From the NCBI GenBank assembly GCA_021794655.1, contig JAJYQJ010000131.1, forward strand, positions 1-41,033: 41,033 nt of DNA, read 5' to 3'. This document shows positions 1 to 41,033 of the stretch, piece by piece. Each line of letters starts with the position of its first letter. The stretch's first letter is position 1. A model generated the notes under the pieces. That model saw nothing but the letters and a program-made list of their open reading frames with translations. It was not told the DNA's origin and made no database searches. Source of the stretch: Actinomycetes bacterium. Lineage in GTDB: Bacteria; Actinomycetota; Acidimicrobiia; Acidimicrobiales; RAAP-2. Made by a program: the position numbers and the translations under genes.

Positions 1-1785
1 TATACTGCCCGATATGAACTCCGATGTCAAGGAGCTGCGATGAACGATGAGCGTTTCAGTCTCACCCACGAATTGGTCGGATGTCTTCCGATCGTGAACT
101 GGTTCGTCGAACGCGTGGGACTCACAGAGATCTTGGAGCGCCACCTTCCTCGTGACGATGTCCGGCTACGTATTTCCCCTGCAGCGGTGGTCGGCCTCGT
201 AGTCCGCAACCTCATCTGTAGTCATCGGCCGCTCTATGCACTTGGTGAGTGGGCTAGCCCCTACGAGCCTGCAGTGCTCGGGTTCAAACCAGGCGAGATC
301 GAGGGACTCAACGACGACCGTGTAGGTCGCACGCTTGACCGCCTCTTTGACTGTGACAGAGCGAGCCTCGTCACCGAGGTAGTGCTTTCTATGGTCGCAG
401 AGTTCGACCTCGATGTTTCAAGATTCCATAATGATTCCACAACCGTCACCTTCCACGGCGCCTACGACCAAGCTGACGGCTACACAAGAGGGGGTAAGTC
501 GACGCCAGCAATTCGACATGGTCACAACAAGGACCACAGGCCAGATTTGAAGCAACTGCTCTACATCCTTACGATCTGCGCAGACGGGGCGGTCCCGATT
601 GCCTATCGCAGTGCTGATGGCAACACCGTCGACGACGTCACCCACGTTAAGACCTGGGACTCGCTCGTGAAGTTGGTCGGGAACTCTAGCTTCACCTACG
701 TCGCAGACTCCAAGCTCTGCTCGGCAGAGGCGATGGGCCACATAGCGCGACTTGGCGGGCGCTTTGTCACGATCATCCCCCACGGACGCAAGGAGGACAC
801 CTGGTTTCGTGAGTTCGCCCAGACCCATGTGCCAACCTGGGAGGAGGCCTACCGCAAAGAAGGCGCACGACTTGGTGACCCAGACCAAGTCTGGCGCACC
901 TTTGTCGCTCCGACTCCATCAACTGAAGGGTATCGGGTGATCTGGGTCCACTCGACCTTAAAAGCTGCTCGTGACGCAAACAGCCGCCAGGCGAGGATCG
1001 AGGCTGGGCTCGCAGCAATCGAGGCTGTCCAGGCCCGTCTCTCATCTCCTAAATCGCGCCTTCGCACCAAGGTGGCCGCAGAAGAGGCAGCGACAGCGGC
1101 CCTTGGAGTTGCCCGGGCGAGCCGCTGGGTTGGTTTCGTCGTCAACGAAGACCAACAAGAGACCTACTCTCAGGAAAAGCGCGGGCGCCCCGGCGCTGAG
1201 ACCCGCTATCGAAAACGAGTCAAGACGGTGTTTAACATCGAGGCGGTGACCAAGGCCGACGTGATCGCCTATGACGCGGCGACCGATGGTTGCTTCCCGT
1301 TGATCTCTAATGCAGACGAGGCCACGCCCGCCCAGGTGCTCGAGTTCTACCGTTACCAGCCAAACCTCGAACGACGCAACCATATGCTAAAAGGCCCCCA
1401 AATGGTCGCACCGGTGTTCATCGAGCACCCGCACCGAATCGAAGCGATCCTGCTCTGCCACTTCTTGGCAATGCTTATCGAGGCCCTCATCGAACGAGAG
1501 ATCCGAACCTCAATGAAGAAAGAGGGCCTCACCGGCATTCCTCTCTACCCCGAGCTACGCAACTGCCCCTCTCCAAGCGCCCCGCGGATCTTGAACATCT
1601 TCGCCAGTCAAGAGCGTCACCACCTCGTCAGCAAAGGAGAGACTGTCCAGGTCTTCGACCCCCAACTCACCCAACTCCACCAGCAGGTTCTCGAACTCCT
1701 GCACATCCCTGCCAGTGTCTACGCCTCGCCGACGACCTCGTGAGGTGGGGGCGTATATGGGTCATGAAAAGTGCGGAACGTCAGA
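1..1785 (+). mobile_element. IS1634-family insertion sequence, left end outside the window
   Basis: The element is inferred from its single transposase gene. The right terminus probably lies at about 1759-1780, where the stretch gtcatgaaaagtgcggaac follows the transposase stop closely and looks like an IS end. The matching left terminus should read gttccgcacttttcatgac and is not in bases 1-39, so the left end is probably outside the window. The adjacent ISKra4-like element inserted just beyond this right end, as shown by its target duplication beginning at 1786. The exact boundary is inference because only one end is visible. Confidence 0.6.
40..1743 (+). CDS. IS1634-family transposase (DUF4277 N-terminus plus DDE domain)
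   Basis: This 567-residue protein catalyses cut-and-paste movement of its own insertion sequence. Residues 1-110 match the N-terminal helical region typical of IS1634 transposases (start MNDERFSLTHELVG, then an ISPAAVVGLVVRNL segment). The RNase H-like core contains FHNDSTTVTF (first catalytic Asp near residue 132), the RHGHNKDHRPDLKQLL block, YVADSKL (second Asp) and the C-terminal YRYQPNLERRN motif carrying the Glu. Length fits the family (about 500-600 residues) and there is no internal stop or frameshift, so it may be active. The ATG at 40 follows aaggagctgcg, a good ribosome binding site. It is the only gene of the element. Confidence 0.93.
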   Translation: MNDERFSLTHELVGCLPIVNWFVERVGLTEILERHLPRDDVRLRISPAAVVGLVVRNLICSHRPLYALGEWASPYEPAVLGFKPGEIEGLNDDRVGRTLDRLFDCDRASLVTEVVLSMVAEFDLDVSRFHNDSTTVTFHGAYDQADGYTRGGKSTPAIRHGHNKDHRPDLKQLLYILTICADGAVPIAYRSADGNTVDDVTHVKTWDSLVKLVGNSSFTYVADSKLCSAEAMGHIARLGGRFVTIIPHGRKEDTWFREFAQTHVPTWEEAYRKEGARLGDPDQVWRTFVAPTPSTEGYRVIWVHSTLKAARDANSRQARIEAGLAAIEAVQARLSSPKSRLRTKVAAEEAATAALGVARASRWVGFVVNEDQQETYSQEKRGRPGAETRYRKRVKTVFNIEAVTKADVIAYDAATDGCFPLISNADEATPAQVLEFYRYQPNLERRNHMLKGPQMVAPVFIEHPHRIEAILLCHFLAMLIEALIEREIRTSMKKEGLTGIPLYPELRNCPSPSAPRILNIFASQERHHLVSKGETVQVFDPQLTQLHQQVLELLHIPASVYASPTTS

Positions 1786-36930: not shown

Positions 36931-39900
36931 ATGTTCCAATCTTCGAGGAGGCGGTTTTCGCAGCTGGCAGTCGTGGCGTTGGCGCCGTTGTTGGTGGTCA
37001 CAACCACCGGCTTAGCCATGGGCGGCACCGGCTCGCTCTCCGCCGGGGCGGCGCAGGCGACCACCAGCTCGTACCCGCCGGCCCCCCAGTGGGTGTCGAC
37101 CTCGCCGAACACGCCCCACCGACCGACTACCTGCCCGCCGGTACCGAACGATCCAAACACGCCGACCGCGGGCCAGACCGCCACCGCCACCGGTTCGGTT
37201 CCCTGGCCTCCGGCCCCGAGCGGCACCAACCCGCTCGACTTCGCCGCCTACGCCCACACCGCCACCCAGTTCCCCCCGGTTCGCCCGGCCAACTGGAACC
37301 AGCAGGGCAACAACGTGAAGCTGACCTCGGCCCGGGCCAACCCGTCGAGCGATCCGAACCTGGCCAAGAACCCCCAAGAGCTGTGCGGCGTGATGGGGAG
37401 TTCGGTGGACACCGCCTGGCAGACCACCACCGGCCGCCCCTCCACGGTGATCGCCGTCACCGACTCGGGGATCGAGTGGTGCGACCCGGCAATCGTCAAC
37501 AAGATCGCGCTGAACATAGGCGCGCTCCCGCCGCCGGAGAACGCAGCCGGTAAGACCAAGGCGCAGCTGGAGGCGTCGGGGACCAAATTCTCCGACACCG
37601 ACCCCTACGACCTGATGGGTACCGGGGTTGTCAACGCAGCTCAGTACACCAACGACCCCCGGGTGCTGGCCACCGCCGCCGCCTACGGCGGCCTGTTCTG
37701 CGCTACCGCCCGCGGCTCCTACCCCGCCCAGCCCGGCCTGGTCTCACCGATGGATCTGATCCGCGCCTTTGGCACCCCGACCCTGCCGAACGGATCCGCC
37801 AACCCCTTTTACTACGGCAAGCAGTCGCCGGCCGGTTTCACCGAGGCGATCGCCGGGTGGAACTTCGTGAACAACAACAACAATCCCTACGACTCCGTCC
37901 ACTTCGACCACGGCACCGGCGAGGCGCAGGACTCGGGAGGTGCGGCCAACAACTCGGCCGCCGAGGTGGGCGCCTGCCCCAACTGTATGATCCTACCGAT
38001 CCGGGTCGGAGACTCATTCATTACCTCCTCGAACCTCTTCGCCCAGGGGGTGCTGTTCGCGGTCGATTCAGGCGCATCCATCGTCCAGGAGGCCCTCGGT
38101 ACCTACGACGTCACCGCGCCGGCCCGTGAGGCGATCGCCTATGCAGCGGCCCACGGTGTTCCCGTGGTGGCAAGCGCCGCCGATGAAGAGGCCTCCCATG
38201 TCAACGAGCCATCGGGTCTGGCCCACACCATTGTGGTCAACTCGGTCACCCCGGCCACCAACTTCAACCCGCCGAGCCAGCTCTACCTCAACGGGTGCAC
38301 CAACTACGGCGGCAACATCGCGGTGAGCGTGGAGAGCACATCGTGCTCGTCGGAGGCGACCGGTAAGGCGGCCGGGATAGTCGGACTTGCCGAGTCGGCC
38401 GCGGCGAACGCCATGGCGGCGGGGACTATCTCCCCCTACCCAGGTCTCACCACGGTGTCCGGCGCGCCGGTCGCGTTGTCCGCCAACGAGATCAAACAGC
38501 TCATCACCATGTCGGCCGATCCCGTCGACTTTGGCAAGGCGGCGCCTCCGTACGGTCCGGCCAACAACTACTCGGTGTCGGGGACCGGCATCCCCCTGGC
38601 CACCACGACCCGCTACCCGAGCCAGGCGGGGTTCAACCAGTACTTCGGCTACGGCAGGGTGAACGCCACCACAATCGTGGACCGGGTGGCCGCCGGTCAG
38701 ATCCCCCCCGAGGCACAGATCAACTCACCGTCGTGGTTCGGGATCGACAGTCCTACCGGCACGCTCCAGATCACCGGCATGGTCGGCACCCCGACGTCGC
38801 TCGCCTCGGGCTGGAACTACCAAGTGGACGTGGGGGTGGGGGTGCAGCCCGCGGTGGGAAGTTGGCACGTGGTCGCCTCCGGGTCAGGCACCGGGGTGCG
38901 GACCGGGCCGCTCGCCACCCTCGACTTGGCCCAGGTGGCCGCCCTCTTCCCCTCGGGGACCAGCTTCAGCGGGGGACCGGTGGGCGTCGGCGGGAGTCCG
39001 TCGACCAACCGGTTCACCTACTCGATCCGGGTGGTAGTGGAGGCGACCGGCGGGAAGACCGCAGGAATGATCGGGATCGCCCGACGGGCAGAGTATCTCC
39101 ACACCAGCCAGAGCCAGACCACCAGCGTCCCGCACCACTTCGCCAGCTCGATCGATGCTTCCCCCACCTTGGCGCCCCTCGGACCGGGAGAGACCAACGT
39201 CCTGCTTGTCCCGACTGCGGACGGGTCGATCTACGCCTACGAGCCGAACGGCTCGGAGTTACCCGGCTTTCCGGTGCACACCAACCCGCTTCCGTACCAC
39301 GCCGGTGAGGCGGCCTTCACCTCGGGCGCGGTAGGCACTGGCCCCCCCGGGACCGTACCGCGGGGCGAGATCATCGGGGGTGTCGCCGTCGGCGACCTGG
39401 CCCATGCCGGGGGTAGCGCGCTCGATGTGGTGACCTGTGACTTGGCCGGCTTGTGCTACGCGTGGAACGCACGCGGGCAGATGCTCCCGGGCTTTCCGGT
39501 CCGGACCAACCCCGCATTCTCGAGCCCGTCCGCCGTCAACTCCAATAACCGGTTACTGCCGGGCATCTTCGGCGCCCCAGCGCTGGCCGACCTGACCGGA
39601 AACGGCCAGTTGGACGTGGTCGCCGCCTCGATGGACCGCCACGTCTACGCATGGGGCCCGAACGGCGCCCCGGTCCCCGGATGGCCGGTGTTAGTGGTAA
39701 ATCCGTCCCTGGTCACCGCGGTCAACTCGGTGACCAACCAGGTGACCTTCTCCGCGACGGCGAACGTGGCCCAGGGGACCAAGCTGATGGACACCCCGGC
39801 TATCGGGAACCTCGCCGGTGGAACTGGCCCTCCCGACGTGGTCGTGGGATCCAACCAGGAGCAGTACGGAACCCCCAACGCCAACCTGGGGTCGAGTCCG

Positions 39901-41033
39901 CTGAGCCTGCTGCTGTCGGTATCAAAGGGGGCGAACGCCGACCTGTTCGCACTCGAGCCAAACGGCACCTTGCACCCGACGAGCACCGGTTCGACCGCTC
40001 CGCCCGGCACCGACGCAAACGCCCTGGTGCCCGGGTGGCCCGCGTCCGTCGCCGACTTGCAGCCGGGGTTGCTTCCCGATCTCGGGGACGGGATCGTGAT
40101 GAGCCCGGTGCTCGGCGACGTGGCCGGCAACGGGCAACTCGAAGTGGGGGTGAACAGTGCGGCCGGCCCAGAGTACGTCCTGAAGCCTAATGGCTCTTCG
40201 TTTCTCGGGACCTCGTCGAGCGGGTTGGCCAACGTCGCCGCCTCGACGGGACCGGGGCCGTTCTCCAACTCGACCGGGGTGCTCGCGACCAGCCTGCCGG
40301 CCCTAGGTGGTCCGGTACTCGCTCCGCTCGGGTCAGGGACAGGGGTGAGCCTGATGGCGCCGGCAGTGAGCATCGGCGGGCTGTTGAACCAGGCGATGCC
40401 TGCCCAGCAGACTCCGTCCCAGAGCCAGGTGGACGCGTGGAGCGCCACTACCGGCGCTTTCGACCCGGGCTTCCCCCAGCAGATGAACGACGTCGGGTTC
40501 ATCGTTACCCCGATCGTGGCCGACGTGGCCGGCTCCACGCCCTACGTGGTAGAGGGCAGCGCGACCTCGGACATCCGGGCGGTAAACGTGAACGGGCAGG
40601 AGGCCCCCGGCTTCCCCAAGTTCACCGGCGGTTGGATGGTGAACAGCCCTTCGTACGGACCGTTCGGGACGCTTGGCACCCAGGTGCTCGCGGCAGGTAC
40701 CCGCCAGGGGCAGCTGTTCGTCTGGAGCACCTCGACCCCCGCGTGCGCCTCGAGCGGGCCGTGGCCGCGTGAGCACCACGACCTGTTGAATACCGGGAAC
40801 CTACAGACCACCAACGCGCCCGAGCCGGCATGCCCGTCACTAGCTGCCGGGTACCGCGCCGTCGCCTCCGACGGGGGTGTGTTCGCCTTCGGCGACGCCG
40901 GATTCTTCGGCTCGATGGGCGCTCAGGCGTTGAACAAGCCGATCGTCGGGATGGCCTCGACCCCTGACGGCAAAGGTTACTGGCTCGTCGCCTCCGACGG
41001 GGGTGTGTTCGCGTTCGGCGACGCCGGGTTCTT
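36931..41033 (+). CDS. Secreted subtilisin-like (S8) protein with propeller repeats, 3' end outside the window
   Basis: One frame of 1367 codons stays open from the ATG at 36931 to the window edge. The N-terminus ([20 protein letters not shown]) is a signal peptide, possibly Tat-type, with a likely cleavage near residue 45. Residues about 170-500 form an S8 domain: Asp178 in [15 protein letters not shown], His327 in [13 protein letters not shown] and Ser474 in [15 protein letters not shown]. The oxyanion position reads [13 protein letters not shown], with Asp418 for the usual Asn, so activity may be altered. About 780-1270 are FG-GAP-like repeats ([30 protein letters not shown], each near a PGFPV or PGWPV). 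VASDGG repeats begin near 1311. Scattered Cys pairs fit an extracellular protein. Codons are more GC-rich than in neighbours, suggesting transfer or distinct selection. Confidence 0.85.
40861..41033 (+). repeat. Start of a 126-nt coding repeat array (VASDGG repeats)
   Basis: Bases 40861-40907 and 40987-41033 match at 45 of 47 positions, a period of 126 nt or 42 residues. The unit reads [20 protein letters not shown], then a variable part with [19 protein letters not shown]. The array continues beyond the window. I associate this repeat with secreted proteins of Acidimicrobiia, where many units probably form a beta-propeller or a long surface domain. Confidence 0.85.

What the first reader, a model, noticed from the sequence alone, without database searches (positions are those of the whole stretch)
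36931..41033. Giant secreted S8 protein with propeller and VASDGG repeats
A frame of at least 1367 codons joins an export signal, a subtilisin-like domain, FG-GAP-like repeats with PGFPV/PGWPV motifs and a VASDGG repeat array. The combination suggests a surface protease whose long repeat domains bind a partner or substrate. It is easily missed because it has no stop in the window and shadow frames crowd it.
Basis: partly seen in the sequence, partly recalled or inferred. Interest (0 to 1): 0.6.

Follow-up and report, generated by a model that had tools for sequence, protein, structure and literature searches.

The report
Propeller-tagged secreted protease of an actinobacterium
The window ends inside a gene for a secreted subtilisin-type protease that has an unusual acidic residue at its active site and ends in a repeat tag shared by dozens of other proteins of the same bacterium, probably a common docking tag whose target is unknown.

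Summary
The ORF at 36931-41033 (1,367 codons, open at the contig end) encodes an export signal, an S8 fold, a beta-sandwich, an FG-GAP-like propeller and the start of a 42-residue VASDGG repeat array. The contig stops in near-identical repeats; contig C65 holds the probable 3' end. The S8 part belongs to a clade found in several phyla: among 81 aligned sequences, triad Asp and His are in 81, Ser in 80 of 80 readable, and all 81 have Asp in place of the oxyanion Asn, as in sedolisins and PC2. The model of S8+sandwich+propeller is confident (pLDDT 92, pTM 0.94).

The array is not specific to this protease. The genome holds 53 array ORFs (30 whole, 23 cut by contig ends), joined to kelch, BNR, sedolisin, acylase, GH43, CHAP, SpoIID and other domains. 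In the 35 scanned with Pfam no best-scoring stretch above cut-off lay in an array. Six units is the commonest count in relatives (26 of 43), with scatter. The fold is probably a propeller, but that model is weak (pLDDT 60). Best reading: a secreted, perhaps acid-adapted protease docked at the cell surface or matrix by a shared tag. The ligand is unknown.

The parts
36931..41033 (+). ORF of the finding, 1,367 codons, 3' end beyond the contig (ATG 36931; AGGGGG upstream; alternative GTG 36925)
36931..37059 (+). export signal (residues 1-43; SRRRF twin-arginine-like start, hydrophobic core, AQA end); Sec or Tat not decided
   Evidence: sequence; crude scans
37279..38694 (+). S8 (subtilisin-fold) domain, residues 117-588
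   Evidence: PF00082 54.2 bits; thermitase 2.5e-25; Z 35.7 to 1thm
37462..37464 (+). catalytic Asp178
   Evidence: Asp in 81 of 81; two outlying relatives in the order set have Glu
37909..37911 (+). catalytic His327
   Evidence: His in 81 of 81, (one of the two scan patterns required this His)
37975..37986 (+). CPNC motif, residues 349-352, clade signature
   Evidence: Cys in 80 of 81 and 78 of 81
38182..38184 (+). Asp418 at the oxyanion position (Asn155 of subtilisin)
   Evidence: Asp in 81 of 81; aligned on the thermitase Asn; 6 of 6 ordinary S8 compared have Asn
38350..38352 (+). catalytic Ser474 in CSSEATG (GTSMAxP in ordinary S8)
   Evidence: Ser in 80 of 80 readable
38698..39102 (+). beta-sandwich between S8 and propeller, residues 590-724
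   Evidence: strands in the model; two furin rows reach model residues 594-598
39109..40731 (+). FG-GAP-like propeller with PGFPV/PGWPV motifs, residues 727-1267, probably eight-bladed
   Evidence: designed protein Cake8 (6tjg) Z 37.3, rmsd 1.9, 319 of 320 residues (that Cake8 is eight-bladed is recalled)
40849..40974 (+). VASDGG unit 1 (42 codons)
40975..41033 (+). VASDGG unit 2, cut by the contig end; matches the end of contig C65 (1 mismatch in 115 bases, window 40919-41033)

Best explanation
A secreted serine endopeptidase. Shown by sequence and model: an S8 fold with an intact Asp-His-Ser triad, joined through a beta-sandwich to a propeller in one well-defined model, followed by a VASDGG array. 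Inferred: the protease cuts proteins outside the cell; the oxyanion Asp, as in sedolisins, must be protonated to stabilise the intermediate, so the enzyme works best at acid pH; the first propeller restricts or presents substrates; and the VASDGG array folds as a (mostly six-bladed) propeller that docks this and dozens of other exported proteins on the cell surface or matrix.
For: Triad and oxyanion Asp conserved in 81 aligned sequences from several phyla by record title, against Asn in 6 of 6 ordinary S8 compared. Model pLDDT 92.4, pTM 0.94; thermitase Z 35.7 and Cake8 Z 37.3. Serine-carboxyl peptidases show the same Asn-to-Asp change (PMC11593635, section 2.4 read), and PC2 has an oxyanion Asp (PMC7144994, passages). 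Array: 53 ORFs in the genome; 22 of 27 array ORFs of 200 aa or more with their 5' end in hand begin with an export-like signal by a crude scan, against 0 of 17 control ORFs chosen by me; partners of unrelated function; 27 of 30 whole arrays end at or near the C-terminus and 3 are N-terminal or internal, so it is not a strictly terminal sorting signal; 6 units in 26 of 43 complete arrays of sampled relatives; most named Foldseek rows for the weak array model are WD-repeat propellers.
Against: No assay, and no pH or ligand evidence. The array model is poor (pLDDT 59.7, pTM 0.57, 5 sequences); its best VIA row has Z 12.1 at rmsd 4.7, in a range where the tool warns that repeats can match by arrangement alone. 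Unit counts scatter: in the one-contig genome G055 the five ORFs read have 4, 5, 6, 7 and 10 units, and the 30 whole arrays of this genome have 1 to 7, six in 15. 31 of 34 homologues with a complete C-terminus lack the array, and 27 of those 31 show no membrane anchor by a crude scan, so anchoring is not essential to the protease. The acid-pH step rests on analogy; PC2 and sedolisins differ in other ways.
Confidence: 0.55

Rival explanations
1. The VASDGG array binds substrate or an environmental polymer (as a lectin-like propeller or CBM does), bringing the enzymes to food and not to the cell's own surface.
For: Several partners are hydrolases (sedolisin type, GH43, penicillin amidase). Tachylectin-like and VCBS actinolectin propellers of Actinobacteria occur in secreted proteins, some with catalytic domains (PMC8023676, passages).
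Against: One module on partners with very different expected substrates, including CHAP and SpoIID proteins and kelch/BNR propellers, fits a common location better than a common substrate. No sugar-site motif was tested.
Confidence: 0.25
2. The S8 domain is not a working protease: the oxyanion and Pro225 changes make it a scaffold or binding protein, as in inactive protease homologues.
For: Two positions that are Asn and Pro in the ordinary S8 compared are changed. Two outlying relatives (L022, L027) have Glu for the catalytic Asp and no HGT motif.
Against: Asp, His and Ser are kept in all readable members of the 81, which is hard to explain without catalysis. PC2 and sedolisins are active with Asp at this position (recalled; the position itself).
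Confidence: 0.15
3. The array is a fold-only spacer or a product of unit amplification with no shared ligand.
For: Units within an array are on average more alike in DNA (75%, 60 pairs) than between arrays (58%, 2,020 pairs, one of them 97.6%; 25 arrays), so arrays seem to re-amplify. New propellers are known to arise this way (PMC9218822, passages). Unit counts scatter.
Against: Presence on 53 ORFs, mostly export-type where it could be tested, the modal count of six, and motifs conserved between arrays point to selection.
Confidence: 0.1
4. The array at the window end is an assembly artefact: the true gene stops after the propeller, as its paralogue on C128 does.
For: The contig ends in the array. 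The C128 paralogue stops directly after the propeller.
Against: The frame is open and unbroken into the array. The C2 paralogue and two G056 homologues carry six units inside contigs. C65 supplies a matching 3' end.
Confidence: 0.03

Closest known systems
Thermitase / S8A subtilisins
   Same: fold, order and identity of the Asp-His-Ser triad
   Different: oxyanion Asp for Asn, CSSEATG for GTSMAxP, CPxC and further conserved Cys, no I9 propeptide seen, fused propeller
Sedolisins / serine-carboxyl peptidases (S53)
   Same: Asp at the oxyanion position
   Different: here His is the base and the triad Asp is in the subtilisin place; no Pro-kumamolisin domain found. The genome has two separate ORFs with that domain, both with VASDGG units
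Proprotein convertase PC2 (S8B)
   Same: S8 triad with an oxyanion Asp (PMC7144994, passages)
   Different: animal enzyme with a P-domain and 7B2 partner (same passages); no second propeller domain (recalled)
Highly repetitive beta-propellers (Pereira and Lupas, PMC9218822, passages)
   Same: near-identical blades amplified within one gene; Actinobacteria are among the most prevalent groups
   Different: the main text has no word beginning with 'acidimicrob' or 'DGG'; supplements not seen, so this family may be in their data
CWB2 cell-wall-binding motifs of Clostridium difficile (PMC4973711, abstract and outline)
   Same: works-like analogy: one tandem-repeat tag shared by many surface proteins
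   Different: ligand of CWB2 (PSII) is known, that of VASDGG is not; no sequence relation was tested

Membership tests
Subtilisin-fold serine peptidases (S8, clan SB) | subtilisin fold | tested here: met
   predicted model: thermitase Z 35.7, rmsd 1.7, 262 aligned; PF00082 above cut-off
Subtilisin-fold serine peptidases (S8, clan SB) | catalytic triad in the order Asp, His, Ser | tested here: met
   D178, H327, S474
Subtilisin-fold serine peptidases (S8, clan SB) | peptidase activity | not testable with these tools
   no assay
Classical subtilisin signature (S8A type) | Asn at position 155 and GTSMAxP around the Ser | tested here: not met
   Asp in 81 of 81; Gly for the Pro in 78 of 80 readable; 6 of 6 ordinary S8 compared have Asn and Pro
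Classical subtilisin signature (S8A type) | N-terminal I9 inhibitor propeptide | tested here: inconclusive
   no Pfam I9 match up to E 1; residues 44-150 have no named domain
Sedolisins (S53) | Ser-Glu-Asp triad with Glu as base | tested here: not met
   His in 81 of 81 at the base position (partly imposed by a scan pattern); His327 in the window itself
Sedolisins (S53) | oxyanion Asp | tested here: met
   literature
Sedolisins (S53) | Pro-kumamolisin activation domain | tested here: not met
   absent from the Pfam result up to E 1
FG-GAP / integrin-type propeller (residues 727-1267) | closed multi-blade propeller | tested here: met
   predicted model: Cake8 Z 37.3, 319 of 320 residues
FG-GAP / integrin-type propeller (residues 727-1267) | FG-GAP family score above its cut-off | tested here: not met
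   FG-GAP_3 17.8 bits against 26.9
Beta-propeller fold for the VASDGG array | closed ring of four-stranded blades | tested here: inconclusive
   weak model, pLDDT 59.7, three strands per unit seen; Foldseek rows mostly WD-repeat, TM by query length 0.42-0.60 in the 50 listed
Any named repeat family for the VASDGG array | library match above cut-off inside an array | tested here: inconclusive
   Pfam: 35 of the 53 array ORFs scanned, best stretch of every family above its cut-off lies outside the array, further stretches are not listed by the tool; NCBIfam: 7 of 53, nothing above cut-off; PHROGs: three sequences, E up to 0.01, nothing; PDB sequence profile best E 0.14

The most novel reading that the evidence does not exclude
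The VASDGG propeller is an undescribed, lineage-wide surface-display tag of Acidimicrobiia: tens of otherwise unrelated exported proteins per genome are placed on one common cell-envelope ligand by it, much as SLH, CWB2 or the T9SS C-terminal domain do elsewhere, and one of its cargoes is an acid-adapted subtilase with a sedolisin-type oxyanion Asp.
Probability: 0.33. Interest if true: 0.72.

Novelty: new variant of a known kind. Interest (0 to 1): 0.52.

Why it matters
How Acidimicrobiia (largely uncultured; recalled) hold enzymes at their surface is, as far as my paper searches showed, little described. A module on dozens of ORFs of one 2.7-Mb genome, present in 106 of 298 sampled genomes of the order and not named by the Pfam and NCBIfam scans made here, is a direct handle on that question. 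The protease clade is a natural test of what Asn-to-Asp at the oxyanion hole does while the His base is kept, one of the steps that separate subtilisins from sedolisins. The arrays also help explain broken assemblies: 23 of 53 array ORFs in this genome are cut by contig ends.

Tried and rejected
Rejected: the 'array' as chance or shadow coding (codon bias and stops; complete copies in paralogues). Rejected: a substrate domain specific to this protease (the array is on 53 ORFs of the genome; of 46 homologous ORFs in the order set 40 show none, 9 of these 40 being cut at the 3' end). Considered: sedolisin membership (base is His, no Pro-kuma domain). Considered: twin-arginine export as a clade feature; only 14 of 81 N-termini carry RRx[FLVIM] by a crude scan, so Tat is left open. 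Considered: array-less homologues carrying another anchor in the same place; 4 of 31 and 4 of 63 complete array-less ORFs, in two overlapping sets, have a C-terminal membrane segment with basic tail, a few with LPxTG-like motifs, against 0 of 3 complete array-bearing ORFs: suggestive, too few to prove replacement.

Limits of the counts. One search read 44 loci (L222-L265; one, L222, is from this genome), chosen as best hits or by me; rows with summed score under 40 bits and arrays cut by a locus end were dropped before the 43 were counted. By genome: the nine G855 ORFs have six units in 7, five in 1, seven in 1; the five G055 ORFs 4, 5, 6, 7 and 10. In one search the 23 cut arrays were left out of the histogram (30 whole: six in 15, four in 5, five in 4, three in 2, one in 2, seven in 1, two in 1); one ORF held twice (L010 and L220) was counted once. 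The 17 control ORFs were chosen by me; transporters and the binding protein of the window were left out. In one search one of two patterns required the His, so its conservation there is partly imposed; Asp178, Asp418 and Ser474 were not required. One search compared the 6 ordinary S8 that held both motifs among the 30 loci. In the separate order set of 46 ORFs two outliers (L022, L027) have Glu for Asp178, and their alignment at the oxyanion site (SNDFD) is ambiguous. The start of units at GYW was imposed by my pattern.

Literature: the listings of searches showed no paper on the VASDGG unit or on this S8 clade; four VASDGG-type strings gave 0 papers in the held open-access library. That is no proof of absence from print. 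PMC2447325 (abstract) describes other 42-residue surface repeats, named RIVW and LVIVD. The promoter/terminator scan of the C65 end gave counts near those of shuffles. The 50 rows show no sedolisin; that absence is not used as evidence. On re-check I corrected four statements of my draft: the number of units that C65 adds, the array status of the window's family, the extent of the library scans, and the scatter of unit counts in G055; for the last I lowered the novel case from 0.35 to 0.33.
Full report
Setting. The window is a whole contig, C137 (1-41033), of a 2.7-Mb draft genome in 155 contigs.

The gene. The ORF from ATG 36931 is open to the contig end, with strong third-position GC; the other five frames hold 11 to 42 stops over the same stretch. 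The contig stops in near-identical 126-base repeats. Among the 100 matches listed for the 3' part in this genome, only C65 reaches 99% (the rest 78% or less). Window 40919-41033 agrees with the C65 end at 114 of 115 bases. C65 starts inside a unit, holds one full unit and a last one ending ...GRALNKPVVGLTGTG and a stop; by the simplest overlay the gene has three units, but identical copies may have collapsed, and most relatives have more.

The protease. Pfam S8 is above its cut-off, and a profile of 33 clade sequences finds thermitase at 2.5e-25. A model of residues 115-1294 with 47 sequences has pLDDT 92.4 and pTM 0.94. Its first part aligns with thermitase (Z 35.7, rmsd 1.7, 262 residues), and residues 613-1153 of the model align with the designed propeller Cake8 (Z 37.3, rmsd 1.9, 319 of 320), which I recall as eight-bladed. 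Between them lies a beta-sandwich.

A clade with an altered active site. Relatives occur in 47 of 397 sampled genomes of the order at 1e-20, this one included. With the window, 81 of 81 have the catalytic Asp, 81 of 81 the His and 80 of 80 readable the Ser. All 81 have Asp where subtilisin has oxyanion Asn155, followed by Glu in 81, with a His four residues after that Glu in 80; 78 of 80 readable have Gly for the Pro of GTSMAxP. Four Cys positions (349, 352, 456, 472) are kept in 78 to 80 of the 80 or 81 readable. Six of six ordinary S8 compared have Asn and Pro. In the order set of 46 ORFs, two outliers have Glu for the catalytic Asp. The Asn-to-Asp change marks the serine-carboxyl peptidases (PMC11593635, section 2.4), and PC2 has an oxyanion Asp too (PMC7144994, passages). 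From this I infer catalysis favoured by acid pH; it is not shown.

The VASDGG module. It is separable: 6 of 46 order homologues carry it, 3 of the 34 with a complete C-terminus, and of the copies in this genome the one on C128 ends without it while the one on C2 has six units (a further match on C132 is an N-terminal piece, probably of the C128 copy). In this genome, 53 ORFs carry units (54 rows, one a duplicate; two have a single unit): 30 whole and 23 cut by contig ends. Because cut pieces can belong to one gene, the number of genes is about 40 to 53. Partners above Pfam cut-offs include kelch, BNR/Vps10, PQQ, fn3, two Pro-kumamolisin proteins, penicillin amidase, GH43, SpoIID, CHAP and arylsulfotransferase (35 of the 53 ORFs scanned). 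Of 27 array ORFs of 200 aa or more with the 5' end in hand, 22 start with an export-like signal by a crude scan, against 0 of 17 control ORFs chosen by me. Whole arrays lie at or near the C-terminus in 27 of 30 and N-terminally or internally in 3. In the Pfam scans the best stretch of each family above cut-off lies outside the arrays (further stretches are not listed); NCBIfam (7 of 53 ORFs) and PHROGs (three sequences) named none, and the PDB sequence profile gave nothing better than E 0.14.

Shape of the module. In 44 loci read, 26 of 43 complete arrays have six units, 11 five, 3 four, 2 seven and 1 ten. In the four-contig genome G855 seven of nine have six; in the one-contig genome G055 the five ORFs have 4, 5, 6, 7 and 10, so the count is not fixed. 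Whole arrays here: six in 15 of 30, the rest 1 to 7. Several complete arrays (L011, L016, L122, C65) end at PxVG just before the stop, as a propeller closed by strand exchange might; the GYW start was imposed by my pattern. The AlphaFold model is weak (pLDDT 59.7, pTM 0.57); most named Foldseek rows are WD-repeat propellers, best VIA Z 12.1. Units within an array are on average 75% identical in DNA, between arrays 58% (25 arrays), in line with ongoing amplification of blades (PMC9218822, passages).

Distribution. The array profile hits 106 of 298 genomes of the order at 1e-15, 24 of 148 of the class and 21 of 396 of the phylum at 1e-10; these samples overlap. Of 11 other same-family genomes shown in these lists, only G014 and G164 have matches (two and one); G016 of the same family, not among them, has three units on its protease homologue (L063). 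The dozens of copies here therefore look like an expansion, not followed up.

Conclusion. It is best read as a secreted, active S8-fold protease of an oxyanion-Asp clade with a built-in propeller, carrying a general tag used by much of this genome's exported proteome. The catalytic inference is fairly strong. The propeller nature of the tag is likely. Its role as a surface anchor is an inference, with substrate binding as the main rival. Novelty lies in a combination and in a module that the scans made here do not name, not in a new kind of system.

Noticed in passing
genome G000, 53 array ORFs: 23 of 53 VASDGG array ORFs are cut by contig ends, so these repeats are probably a main cause of the broken assembly.
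   Followed up: yes
same-family genomes; L063: This genome has dozens of arrays; of 11 other same-family genomes shown only G014 and G164 have one or two matches, while G016 (not among them) has at least one array; expansion or acquisition is open.
   Followed up: partly
L184 and L216: Two proteins with a Pro-kumamolisin (sedolisin-type) domain also carry VASDGG units, both cut by contig ends.
   Followed up: partly
L022 and L027: A related S8-like group has Glu for the catalytic Asp and no HGT motif, perhaps inactive.
   Followed up: no
L089, L101, L079, L174: Some array-less homologues of the protease end in a membrane segment, a few with LPxTG-like motifs (LPTTG, LARTG, LPFTG).
   Followed up: partly
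L255-L259 (one-contig genome G055): Variant array units with a longer loop (such as NTYTLGLTGLGGSRPL) and varying unit number.
   Followed up: no
window 1-1743 and 1821-2960: Two transposase-like ORFs at the other contig end, which may have broken the assembly there (label from recall, not searched).
   Followed up: no
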